The translations under genes and the position numbers were made by a program. Below the pieces are notes generated by a model, which was not told the origin of the DNA, made no database searches, and saw only the letters and a list, made by a program, of their open reading frames with translations. Below are positions 22,881 through 35,296 of a DNA stretch of 35,298 nt, in pieces (the stretch's first letter is position 1; each line of letters opens with the position of its first letter). The stretch is from Candidatus Manganitrophaceae bacterium (GTDB taxonomy: Bacteria > Nitrospirota > Nitrospiria > SBBL01 > JAADHI01): contig JAADHI010000053.1 of assembly GCA_013151935.1 (NCBI GenBank), positions 1-35,298 on the forward strand, in the 5' to 3' direction.

Positions 22881-23344
22881 TTGAAAGTGTTTCTTGAGGG
22901 CGATTTTAGGCTGTTTTGGCCCGATTACTGTGCGACCTCTATCCCGATGAGAAAGGGCTTTTTGTTTCTGGTCGCCATCATGGACTGGCATTCCAAAAAA
23001 GTCCTCTCTTGGCGACCGACGGTGTTCCTGTCATTTTCAACAGCGATCAGGGCTGCCAATTCACCAGCGCCGACTTCACTCAGGTCCTTAAAAATAAAGG
23101 GATTAAAATTAGTATGGATGGGAAAGGACGGTGGGTCGACAAGGTGTTCATCGAGCGACTCTGGCGCAGCCTAAAATATGAGGACGTGTATCTCAAAGCC
23201 TACGACTCAGTTGCAGAAGCAAAAGAAGGCATCGGCATTTGGATGACTTTTTATAATCAAGACAGGCGGCATGCTAGTCTTGAAAGGATGACACTGGATC
23301 AGGTGTATTATAAACTGCCTTCAGGATTACCTGAGGCAGCATGA
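22881..23344 (+). pseudogene. IS3-family transposase (OrfB) remnant
   Basis: Two reading frames together give an IS3-type DDE transposase. The first frame reads IPMRKGFLFLVAIMDWHSKKVLSWR. The second frame continues with PVIFNSDQGCQFTS, then ISMDGKGRWVDKVFIERLWR and KYEDVYLKAYDSVAEAKEG to the end. About 20 residues and the frame are lost between the two parts, and everything before the first catalytic Asp is missing. The second catalytic Asp (SDQG) and the Glu (IERLW) remain. It cannot encode an active enzyme. Confidence 0.85.
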
Positions 23345-31427: not shown

Positions 31428-32157
31428 AGAACCCTACCGCTGGGCCGAAGCCGTCTCCAATAGACGTGAGTATTTGGAAGACCAACTGCAATCAGGAAGC
31501 CCCGTCGTTGCCCTCCCCTGTATTGAGGGAATTTTGTTGCTCTCCGTCTCGGCCGGGACACAAAAAGTCTATGAGATCTATGACCGCGTTGCTTTGGGTG
31601 CACTGGGTCATCCGGCTGATGTCGAACGACTCAGAAACATCGTCATCGACATGGCCCACCTCGAAGGTTTTAATCGCTCTCCCTCAGATGTGAGTGCGCG
31701 CCGTCTGGTTCAATTCGGCTTGGCCCCCCCTGTCAAACAAGCCTTTGAAGAAATTGGACGCGCCCCCTATATTGCACGCCTCTTGATTGCCGAGTTGGGT
31801 AAAGATCAAAGCCGCATCTTCTACAGTCTCAACTACGATGGTGTTTTTAAAGAGACCCACACAGGCCTCGTGCTTGCAACACCGGGCGAGGCCACCGAAC
31901 GTTGTGAATCCGCATTGAAAAATTGTGAGGGACTTGAAAACCGTGCAATGTCTGAGGTCTTTGGCGAAGCCTTCAAACTCTGGGGTCTTGCCGAAGTGGC
32001 AGAGGACAGCCGTGAAAGTCATCTTCGAGACGTGCTCAAAGATCGGGAAATTGAAGCCATGCTGCTCTCAGAAAGTGTGCCCGGCCCATGTAAAGTGCGC
32101 CCATTATCCAAAACAGAAATGATGACCTTCTCTCAGCCTTGGAGAGCACCTGCATGA
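31420..32157 (+). CDS. prcA: Proteasome alpha subunit
   Basis: PrcA forms the outer rings of the 20S proteasome, gates the chamber and docks the ATPase. The N-terminus (MFEEPYRWAEAVSNRREYLEDQLQ) and segments such as GILLLSVSAGTQKVYEIYDR, ALGALGHPADVERLR and RPYIAR-like RAPYIARLLIAELG are as in bacterial PrcA. The 245-residue length is normal. No catalytic Thr is expected or present. It overlaps prcB by eight bases and pafA by four (ATGA), so the three products are translationally coupled. Confidence 0.93.
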   Translation: MFEEPYRWAEAVSNRREYLEDQLQSGSPVVALPCIEGILLLSVSAGTQKVYEIYDRVALGALGHPADVERLRNIVIDMAHLEGFNRSPSDVSARRLVQFGLAPPVKQAFEEIGRAPYIARLLIAELGKDQSRIFYSLNYDGVFKETHTGLVLATPGEATERCESALKNCEGLENRAMSEVFGEAFKLWGLAEVAEDSRESHLRDVLKDREIEAMLLSESVPGPCKVRPLSKTEMMTFSQPWRAPA

Positions 32158-33566
32158 GACCGCCTCATCTCTTCGGCATCGAAACGGAATACGGTCTTCT
32201 GCATACGGATATGAATGATCCTCATGCCGCCGAGCGTCTTTCGCATGGAGTCAGGGATCATCTTTTTGATAAAAAGCGCGTGGGTCTACTCGACATGCAT
32301 CATCGTGCCCACGACGAACCCGCCGGAAACGGCGGGTTTTTATTAAATGGCGGTCGGTTTTACATCGACATGGGGCATGTCGAATACGCCACACCGGAAT
32401 GTACGCGTCTCAGCGAATTGGTGGCTTTCAATCGCGCAGGCGACCTGCTCTTGCATCAAAGTTTAGACGAAATGGGGTTGCTTGAGTCTGCGAGTTTCAT
32501 CAAAAACAACATTGATTACGAAACCGGTGCCACCTTCGGTGCGCATGAAAATTACTTGGTTTCCCGTGATTTTCCCTTTACACAAGAAGGTCTCGCACAG
32601 CTTGTGCCTTTTTTAACCACCCGCCAAATCTTCAGTGGCACCGGAAGGCTCGGTGCCAATTTTGTGCCGGAAGGTTTTGTCGCCCTGGGAGATGCAAAAT
32701 TCCCGGACATTCCCTTCCAAATTTCACAACGTGCCGATCACATTGTCAGCGACCTCTACCAATGGGTCCAGTTCAGTCGTGCCATTATCAATACCCGCGA
32801 TGAACCCCTGGCCGATCCAGAACGTTTTCGCCGGATGCATTTGTTACTGGGAGATTCCAATCTCTGCGAATATGCCACCGCCCTAAAAATCGGCACCACG
32901 GCGCTTGTGCTCGACCTCATTCACGAAGGTCTGGCCCCGATACTCGATCTGCTTGAACCTGTGATGGCCCTCAAAATCATTTCACGTGATCCCACCCGCC
33001 GCTGGAAGATCCGATTATTGGACGGCAGGGAAACAAGGGCCCTCGACATACAACGCGCTTATTTAGAGGCCGCTAAGAAGTACCTTGCGGGAGAAAATGA
33101 TGACACCGATTGGACACTTCAAGCCTGGGAAACCATGCTGAACGATCTGGAAAAGAACGATGTCGAAGTCTTGGTCGGTCGGGTGGATTGGGCCTCTAAA
33201 TTGAGCTTGTTCACACAATTCAAAGAGAGCGAAAATTTAGACTGGCAAGACCCCTGGCTCAAGAGCCTCGACCTGGAGTATCACAACCTGGATCCGGAAC
33301 GGGGCCTCTACCTCGCCCTTGAAAGTGAAGGCAAGATCGCACGCTTGAGCACGGATGAGGCCATCCAACAAGCCACTACAATGCCACCGGTGGCAAGCCG
33401 GGCCGCTGGTCGGGCCTACCTCATTCGCAAACTCATGGAAAAACCCGCGCCCTACGTCATTAACTGGGCTTCTTTCTATCTCGAAAAAGACGTGCTCGGC
33501 ACCACAGACCCCTTTAAAAACTACCTCAAAGAAGCCAAGGCGATGTGGGAAAATCAGAGCATATAA
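32154..33566 (+). CDS. pafA: UBact/Pup ligase
   Basis: PafA uses ATP to activate the C-terminal Glu of the modifier and couples it to substrate lysines. The ORF track starts at TTG 32139, but ATG 32154 with GGAGAG seven bases upstream gives MRPPHLFGIETEYGLL, 470 residues. NGGRFYIDMGHVEYATPEC matches the PafA version of the metal/Asp motif. KNNIDYETGATFGAHENYLV, NTRDEPLADPERFRRMHL and LDLEYHNLDPERGLYLAL complete the fold. The Dop loop is absent, which separates it from the paralogue three genes upstream. It closes the operon and is followed by a strong terminator. Confidence 0.92.
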   Translation: MRPPHLFGIETEYGLLHTDMNDPHAAERLSHGVRDHLFDKKRVGLLDMHHRAHDEPAGNGGFLLNGGRFYIDMGHVEYATPECTRLSELVAFNRAGDLLLHQSLDEMGLLESASFIKNNIDYETGATFGAHENYLVSRDFPFTQEGLAQLVPFLTTRQIFSGTGRLGANFVPEGFVALGDAKFPDIPFQISQRADHIVSDLYQWVQFSRAIINTRDEPLADPERFRRMHLLLGDSNLCEYATALKIGTTALVLDLIHEGLAPILDLLEPVMALKIISRDPTRRWKIRLLDGRETRALDIQRAYLEAAKKYLAGENDDTDWTLQAWETMLNDLEKNDVEVLVGRVDWASKLSLFTQFKESENLDWQDPWLKSLDLEYHNLDPERGLYLALESEGKIARLSTDEAIQQATTMPPVASRAAGRAYLIRKLMEKPAPYVINWASFYLEKDVLGTTDPFKNYLKEAKAMWENQSI

Positions 33567-33642: not shown

Positions 33643-33687
33643 GGGATCGTCACCCCCCTCTTTTGAGGGGATTGACGATCCCTTTTT
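33643..33687 (+). terminator. Strong intrinsic terminator after pafA
   Basis: GGGATCGTC pairs with GACGATCCC, with an inner CCCCTC/GAGGGG stem around TTTT, followed by five T. It lies about 80 bases after pafA and marks the end of the proteasome operon. Confidence 0.88.
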
Positions 33688-33736: not shown

Positions 33737-34633
33737 TTGGATTCCAAAATGTTTCCTTCCGCTCTCTGTACAAAAACAGCACTTCTATTGGTTTCCAGGT
33801 TTCATTTCACGCTCGTCGTGACATCGCCGATTTATCTTCCCAAAAACAAAGGTGCAACACTCCGTGGCGGTTTTGGCAATGCCTTAAAAGCCGTCTGCTG
33901 TACTGTCCCGCATACGGCTTGTTCTGATTGTCCCCGCTTTAGGGTCTGTGCCTATCCCACGCTTTTTGAGACGCCCCTCCCCATTGCCGCAACACGCATG
34001 GTAAAAGGAAATGCGATACCACGTCCCTTTGTCATCGAACCGCCCCTTGGGGAAAAAATGTGTTATGCGCCGGGAGATGTGATGACCCTTTCGCTGGTTT
34101 TGATCGGAAAAGCCAGTGCATCCCTGCCGTATTTTGTTCGGGCTTTTGAGGTCTTGGGAAAAGAGGGACTCGGAATGGGGCGAGGGCATTTTAAGGTCGA
34201 GACCGTTCAGTTGCTAGAGACCGAAAAAGAACCTGTAGTGGAATGCCAAAACATCACCCTTCATTTTTTGACACCGACCCGGATTGTTGTAAAGGGTCAG
34301 GCAAAAAAAGACCTCGACTTTCCCCTTCTATTTCGCACCCTGCTTCGCCGCATCGAAAATTTAAGGGCTTTTCATGGGGTGAATCATGACGGGGCACTCG
34401 ACCCGCCCGTACATGCCGAGGCGGTTCAAGTTATTTCAAGCAGCTTAAAGTGGATTGAGCAGGAACGTTATTCCAGTCGACAAAAGCAAAACATGCCACA
34501 AGACGGCTTTGTGGGAAAAATCAGCTTTGAAGGAAATCTCGGGTCATTTTTACCTTATTTGAGCTTGGGCGAATTAGTGCATGTCGGGAAAGGTGCCACT
34601 TTTGGTATGGGGCGGTTTGAGATCAATACTTAA
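33737..34633 (+). CDS. cas6: Cas6-like CRISPR RNA endoribonuclease, stand-alone
   Basis: This protein of up to 298 residues matches the Cas6 family (RAMP fold). Near the N-terminus, GATLRGGFGNALK is followed by a Cys cluster (C-x6-C-x2-C-x5-C in CTVPHTACSDCPRFRVC) and YPTLFETP, as in the zinc-containing Cas6 subfamily. Glycine-rich loops occur at GLGMGRGHF and at the C-terminus (FGMGRFEI), after GFVGKISFEGNLGSFLPYLSLGE. Cas6 cuts pre-crRNA at the repeat. No repeat array or other cas gene is in the window. Start is TTG 33737 or ATG 33749; neither has a strong ribosome site. It follows the proteasome terminator and faces vapC. Confidence 0.87.
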   Translation: MDSKMFPSALCTKTALLLVSRFHFTLVVTSPIYLPKNKGATLRGGFGNALKAVCCTVPHTACSDCPRFRVCAYPTLFETPLPIAATRMVKGNAIPRPFVIEPPLGEKMCYAPGDVMTLSLVLIGKASASLPYFVRAFEVLGKEGLGMGRGHFKVETVQLLETEKEPVVECQNITLHFLTPTRIVVKGQAKKDLDFPLLFRTLLRRIENLRAFHGVNHDGALDPPVHAEAVQVISSSLKWIEQERYSSRQKQNMPQDGFVGKISFEGNLGSFLPYLSLGELVHVGKGATFGMGRFEINT

Positions 34634-34652
34634 AGATTAGTGAAGAAGAGTC

Positions 34653-35060
34653 TTAAAGCGGATAGTGTTTCAGGTCGGGACAGTGTTCAGTGATAAAACC
34701 ATAGTCATGATCTCGATGAAGCAGGAGGCAAGTGTAATCAATAGTGATTGTCGCGATGAGTGCATCCATTGCCGAAACAGTAACGCCCTTTCTACGAAGA
34801 GCAAAAGCCAGATTCGCAGCAAGAGACCAATGGTTATCCGTAACCTGCAACCATCGAAGTCCCTGAAGGCAGTCTTCAACATCCATTTTTTCCCGCAGGC
34901 TGCGGCATCCTTGAATCAGTTCAATAACGACCGGCCCTGCAACCGCGACGCGGTTTTCATCAAGAAGCGCGCTCAGGGCCGTCTTAATCTCTGGAAAACC
35001 CTTACGCGCGAAGAAGCAGATCCATGCACTTGTATCCACAAAAACCGGGGTTTGATTCAT
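34653..35060 (-). CDS. vapC: VapC-type PIN-domain toxin
   Basis: This 135-residue PIN-domain ribonuclease is the toxin of a type II toxin-antitoxin pair. The four acidic positions are present: VDTSAW (Asp9), VVIELIQG (Glu about 47), SAMDALIA (Asp about 98) and HRDHDYGF (Asp about 117). Such toxins cleave tRNA or rRNA when released from the antitoxin. It overlaps the antitoxin gene by four bases (ATGA). It is convergent with cas6. Confidence 0.93.
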   Translation of the reverse strand: MNQTPVFVDTSAWICFFARKGFPEIKTALSALLDENRVAVAGPVVIELIQGCRSLREKMDVEDCLQGLRWLQVTDNHWSLAANLAFALRRKGVTVSAMDALIATITIDYTCLLLHRDHDYGFITEHCPDLKHYPL

Positions 35061-35296
35061 TTGCTGTCTTTCGTCAGTGAGGCCTGCCTTGTTTCTCTCA
35101 AGTGTCTTGCGGTCTTCAGATCCCCAAGATCCCAGGTGATCGCACCGCTTCCGCTCATCTCCTTTAAGCGCTCCCGTTGCCGAAGTTTAACAAAGGCTTC
35201 CAGCGCACGATGCACAGTCTCTTTCTTGGTCTTTGACTGTGAAAGCGTCAGTGCTTTTTTCAAAAGCACCTCGTCAATATCAATGAGTGTTTTCAT
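35057..35296 (-). CDS. vapB: VapB-type antitoxin
   Basis: This 79-residue protein has an N-terminal ribbon-helix-helix DNA-binding start (MKTLIDIDEVLLKKALTLSQ) with the helix KKETVHRALEAFVKLRQRERL, then a toxin-binding tail with a conserved Trp (GAITWDLGDLKTAR). It is the antitoxin of the downstream vapC and probably represses its own promoter, which lies beyond the window edge. The ATG at 35296 is two bases from the end, so a longer N-terminus cannot be excluded. Confidence 0.88.
   Translation of the reverse strand: MKTLIDIDEVLLKKALTLSQSKTKKETVHRALEAFVKLRQRERLKEMSGSGAITWDLGDLKTARHLRETRQASLTKDSK

What the first reader, a model, noticed from the sequence alone, without database searches (positions are those of the whole stretch)
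33737..35296. Orphan Cas6 between the proteasome operon and a VapBC pair
A full-length Cas6 with Cys cluster and both Gly-rich loops has no array and no other cas gene in the window. It follows the proteasome terminator and converges on vapC. It could serve arrays elsewhere in trans, be a relic, or process other RNAs.
Basis: partly seen in the sequence, partly recalled or inferred. Interest (0 to 1): 0.55.

Follow-up and report, generated by a model that had tools for sequence, protein, structure and literature searches.

The report
Leftover Cas6 from dismantled CRISPR
A lone but intact CRISPR RNA-cutting enzyme (Cas6) sits beside a toxin-antitoxin pair; in related bacteria the same gene heads a complete type III-B CRISPR system that cannot be found in this genome, so it is most likely an ordinary leftover.

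Summary
Window 33737-34633 (+) encodes an intact 298-aa Cas6. It is followed 19 nt later by a convergent vapC and vapB, and the contig ends right there, so nothing can be read beyond the right edge. The genome holds exactly one Cas6 of this family.

In three genomes of the same family (G001, G002, G005) the homologue (57-63% identity) stands at the head of a type III-B cmr operon. In G001 and G005 this lies near arrays with the repeat ...GCCTCGYTGATAGAGGATTGAAAC. None of this is detectable in the window's genome: no Cas10 or Cmr, no RAMPs, no III-B repeat.

What the genome does keep is a stripped type I-C locus: cas1, cas2 and three hairpin repeats, with no Cas3, Cas5c, Cas7c, Cas8c or Cas4, and Gabija genes upstream. 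Hairpin arrays of this kind are normally processed by Cas5c. Genome G006 carries a full I-C system with no detectable relative of this Cas6.

The proteasome-cas6 adjacency is not conserved. Four relatives carry other genes there, including a retron in G001.

Best reading: an orphaned, probably still foldable III-B Cas6, left behind or moved when its system was lost. The main rival is a cmr operon in the roughly 9% of the genome that is missing. Low interest.

The parts
33737..34633 (+). cas6, intact 298-aa CRISPR repeat endoribonuclease of the PF10040 kind, related to the cas6 of type III-B (cmr) loci
33643..33687 (+). hairpin plus T-run (terminator-like) separating the proteasome operon from cas6
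   Evidence: z -6.95; sequence
34653..35060 (-). vapC, PIN-domain toxin gene, convergent with cas6 (19 nt between the stop codons)
   Evidence: NF047959, E 6.9e-28
35057..35296 (-). vapB antitoxin gene; its start lies 2 nt from the contig end
   Evidence: (PF09957, E 2.6e-12)
32139..33566 (+). last gene of the upstream proteasome operon (Dop/PafA-like ligase family); neighbour only, adjacency not conserved

Best explanation
The gene encodes a Cas6 of the type III-B lineage. In its intact relatives it presumably cuts the transcript of an unhairpinned array 8 nt upstream of each spacer, leaving the AUUGAAAC handle, and supplies crRNAs to the Cmr complex. In this genome the cmr operon and its array are not detectable, and the gene has ended up alone, or was moved, into a variable site downstream of a proteasome operon next to vapBC. 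The protein looks foldable and probably still able to bind and cut cognate repeats, but with no cognate array and no effector found it most likely has no immune function now. It is a leftover of a CRISPR estate that has lost two systems, III-B and I-C. Shown: the gene, its relatives' operons, and the absence of the other parts from the assembly. Inferred: the cutting site, retained activity, and loss rather than incomplete assembly.
For: Homologues at 57-63% identity in G001, G002 and G005 stand directly upstream of cmr genes (Cmr1, Cas10, Cmr3, Cmr4, Cmr5 and Cmr6 confirmed in G005 and G001), and the repeat ..GCCTCGYTGATAGAGGATTGAAAC lies near cmr in G001 (12 copies) and G005 (2 copies). The own genome has one PF10040 gene, no RAMP, no Cas10, Cmr4 or Cmr1 by a query that recovers them in relatives, no III-B repeat, no Cas5c, Cas8c, Cas7c or Cas4 and no Cas3 over the cut-off. 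It retains only cas1, cas2 and three I-C repeats. Mirror relics occur in the genus: G004 has four III-B repeats and G003 one, with no detectable cas6 or cmr.
Against: The ORF is intact and does not evolve significantly faster than its linked sisters (Tajima tests not significant). The genome is 90.8% complete and the contig ends 665 nt after cas6, so a cmr operon could be unassembled. The own copy has 7 of 77 near-invariant positions changed against 1-2 in its sisters, which hints at relaxed constraint but is weak evidence and untested statistically.
Confidence: 0.6

Rival explanations
1. The cmr operon, and perhaps its array, exists beyond the contig end or in the missing part of the genome. 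Cas6 is then simply separated from it by vapBC and serves it as usual.
For: The window is a whole contig that ends 665 nt after cas6. The assembly is 90.8% complete in 171 contigs, and defence islands are often lost from bins (general knowledge). Every same-family relative with this cas6 has cmr next to it.
Against: In G001 and G002 cmr1 begins within about 55 nt of cas6, with a short extra ORF between in G005; here vapC occupies that place. Two array types, both effector sets and Cas4 would all have to be missed. The contig end shows no second copy elsewhere in the genome, so it is not an obvious assembly repeat.
Confidence: 0.24
2. Cas6 acts in trans on the remaining hairpin array beside cas1-cas2, taking the place of the lost Cas5c.
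For: Both repeat types end in the same 12 nt, GAGGATTGAAAC, including the AUUGAAAC handle typical of Cas6 products. Cas5c is not found.
Against: The array has two spacers and no detectable effector to use a crRNA. The rest of the repeat differs: one is a strong 9-bp hairpin (dG -17), the other weakly structured (dG -7.2). Relatives with this hairpin array carry their own I-C genes (G006, G001), and G006 has no relative of this Cas6. In I-C systems Cas5d does this job (PMC5965380).
Confidence: 0.1
3. Cas6 was recruited to process non-CRISPR RNAs, perhaps linked to the proteasome or to VapBC.
For: An intact ORF kept without detectable partners; VapC is itself an RNase (family knowledge).
Against: Proteasome adjacency is absent in G001, G002, G004 and G007, none of the three same-family homologues lies beside vapBC, and no RNA family is found nearby.
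Confidence: 0.04

Closest known systems
Cas6 of type III-B (cmr) loci in the same bacterial family (G005, G001, G002)
   Same: Same protein family, 57-63% identity, conserved Cys residues, Gly-rich stretches and the WxxxERYSxRQ motif
   Different: Here no cmr gene, no cognate array; vapBC follows instead
Isolated or orphan cas loci (Zhang and Ye 2017, PMC5294841)
   Same: cas gene(s) without a companion array nearby; reported as common, 28% of type III loci
   Different: That survey counts loci of at least three cas genes; here a single gene
Stand-alone Cas6 enzymes such as SsoCas6 (PMC3652601)
   Same: Cas6 fold; SsoCas6 also lacks the canonical catalytic His yet cuts repeats
   Different: SsoCas6 serves working systems in its own genome

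Membership tests
Cas6 (PF10040 / COG5551 kind) | Significant match to Cas6 profiles over the full length | tested here: met
   PDLC01477 E 1.1e-88 over residues 19-297; PF10040 above its cut-off
Cas6 (PF10040 / COG5551 kind) | Cas6 fold with two RRM-like domains and a C-terminal Gly-rich loop | tested here: met
   Foldseek: only Cas6 entries in the top 25 (E down to 2.6e-11), TM-scores moderate at 0.43-0.54, model confidence moderate; GKGATFGMGR loop present
Cas6 (PF10040 / COG5551 kind) | Catalytic His in the first helix | tested here: inconclusive
   The likely position (48) is Asn, as in 17 of 31 aligned relatives with a residue there, including cmr-linked G005 and G001; His in 9, Tyr in 5. 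Assignment of this position as catalytic is an inference. SsoCas6 shows His is not essential (PMC3652601)
Cas6 (PF10040 / COG5551 kind) | Cuts CRISPR repeats | not testable with these tools
   Needs an enzyme assay
Type III-B CRISPR-Cas system | Cas10 and Cmr1/3-6 in the same genome | tested here: not met
   No RAMP; no Cas10, Cmr4 or Cmr1 in a 90.8% complete assembly; Cmr3, Cmr5 and Cmr6 not queried separately
Type III-B CRISPR-Cas system | Cognate array repeat | tested here: not met
   GCCTCGYTGATAGAGGATTGAAAC absent with up to 3 mismatches
Type I-C CRISPR-Cas system (elsewhere in the genome) | cas1-cas2 with hairpin array | tested here: met
   C143/C147: Cas1c, Cas2c, three repeats; cas1 is split by a contig gap of about 53 codons
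Type I-C CRISPR-Cas system (elsewhere in the genome) | Cas3, Cas5c, Cas7c, Cas8c | tested here: not met

The most novel reading that the evidence does not exclude
This Cas6 has been kept by selection to process cellular RNAs after its CRISPR system was lost.
Probability: 0.04. Interest if true: 0.6.

Novelty: new member of a known kind. Interest (0 to 1): 0.14.

Why it matters
It is a clear case of piecemeal CRISPR loss within one genus: cas6 alone here, arrays alone in G004 and G003, and the III-B system in G001 and G002. It warns against reading function into a conserved-looking lone Cas6. If the enzyme proved to be maintained for other RNAs it would be of real interest, but nothing here points to that.

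Tried and rejected
A conserved link to the UBact-type proteasome: rejected, the site downstream differs in G001 (retron genes), G002, G004 and G007. A catalytic lesion at position 48: rejected as a sign of decay, since Asn there is common. Accelerated evolution: Tajima tests not significant. Spacer targets: neither spacer core has an exact match in IMG/VR. The genome-contig scan with Cas6 found no relative; it finds only close relatives and may leave out records very near the window's own genome. Promoter scan at cas6: nothing. Rfam: nothing. A literature search for orphan, solo or stand-alone Cas6 gave one irrelevant review.

Full report
Observation. The window is a whole contig, G000:C25, 35,298 nt, in a 2.53 Mb assembly of 171 contigs that is 90.8% complete. 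At 33737-34633 (+) lies an intact 298-aa ORF that is Cas6 by profile (PDLC01477 1.1e-88; PF10040 6e-20) and by predicted fold, with the top PDB matches all Cas6 (model confidence moderate). A strong hairpin with a T-run separates it from the proteasome operon. Convergent vapC and vapB follow, and the contig ends at vapB.

Relatives. Among 58 relatives searched, six genomes have a match: the own genome, two of four congeners (G001, G002), G005 in the same family, and two more distant ones (G012, G020). In G005 and G001 the downstream genes are Cmr1, Cas10, Cmr3, Cmr4, Cmr5 and Cmr6. In G002 the operon runs off the contig after cmr1 and the start of cas10. In G012 the same order cas6, cmr1, cas10 is read from the ORFs by resemblance, and in G020 a csm-like operon; neither was profile-checked. 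A cognate repeat..GCCTCGYTGATAGAGGATTGAAAC, lies beside the cmr locus in G001 (12 copies) and G005 (2 copies). So this Cas6 belongs to a III-B lineage.

The own genome. It has a single PF10040 gene. RAMP proteins, Cas10/Cmr4/Cmr1 (where relatives serve as positives), the III-B repeat, Cas5c/Cas8c/Cas7c/Cas4 (again with positives) and Cas3 above the curated cut-off are not found. What is found: cas1 split over the ends of contigs C143 and C147 with about 53 codons missing between, cas2, and an array of three repeats with two spacers. The repeat GCACCCGTCCTTCGGGATGGGTGAGGATTGAAAC matches the type I-C hairpin repeats of G006, G001 and G005. In G006 this array follows a complete cas3-cas5c-cas8c-cas7c-cas4-cas1-cas2 operon without any relative of this Cas6. 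In the own genome the genes upstream of cas1 include two small ORFs that G001 carries between cas7c and cas4 (the first ends early at a TAA here), preceded by GajA and GajB. This is an I-C locus stripped of its interference genes.

Mechanism. In the family's intact loci Cas6 presumably cuts the weakly structured repeat (dG -7.2) upstream of AUUGAAAC; type III crRNAs carry the common 8-nt 5' handle made by Cas6 (PMC5965380). In I-C systems Cas5d does the cutting instead (PMC5965380). The own array is a strong hairpin (dG -17). With neither a cognate array nor an effector found, the gene most likely has no immune role now. That it still cuts RNA is an inference. Position 48, the likely site of the classical catalytic His, is Asn, but this is the commonest residue there among 31 relatives, and SsoCas6 cuts without such a His (PMC3652601).

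Is it decaying? The evidence is mixed. The ORF is intact and relative-rate tests are not significant, but 7 of 77 near-invariant positions differ against 1-2 in its three closest relatives. This count was made without a significance test and other single sequences in the set also reach 9-12, so it carries little weight. In the tree the own Cas6 pairs with G005 of another genus (96/88) rather than with congeners G001 and G002, which suggests transfer or differential loss.

Adjacency. The proteasome operon is shared, but what follows it differs: retron genes (reverse transcriptase in two pieces, NDT_II-A) in G001, universal stress and other housekeeping genes in G002 and G004, other genes in G007. 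The contig of G006 shows electron-transport genes there. The proteasome-cas6 pair is therefore local.

Limits. Absence is from an incomplete assembly searched by profile and pattern; I could not read every contig. The chance that a cmr operon lies just beyond vapBC or in unassembled sequence is not negligible (about a quarter). Isolated type III loci are common (28%, PMC5294841, counted for loci of three or more genes), so the finding is ordinary either way.

Noticed in passing
L015:12465-16654 and L014:1-1198 (G000 contigs C143, C147): A Gabija pair (GajA, GajB) lies upstream of a stripped I-C remnant: cas1 split by the contig gap, cas2 and a three-repeat array.
   Followed up: partly
L078:7590-11627 (G001, downstream of the proteasome operon): Retron type II-A-like genes: reverse transcriptase in two ORFs (possibly broken), NDT_II-A, and an OLD-family ATPase, at the site where G000 has cas6.
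   Followed up: partly
G000:C25 29175-33563 and G000:C27 63-4365; also G001, G002, G004, G006, G007: Several genomes of this family carry two separate loci for the Dop/PafA-like ligase family, which suggests two proteasome operons per genome.
   Followed up: no
L016:901-1806 and L017:2066-2620: SAVED-type proteins (one TIR-like, one with a membrane/CARF-like match) lie just downstream of the cmr operons in G005 and G001, probably cyclic-oligonucleotide effectors.
   Followed up: no
window 22916-23344: ORF resembling an IS3-family integrase fragment, upstream of the proteasome region (read by eye, not profile-checked).
   Followed up: no
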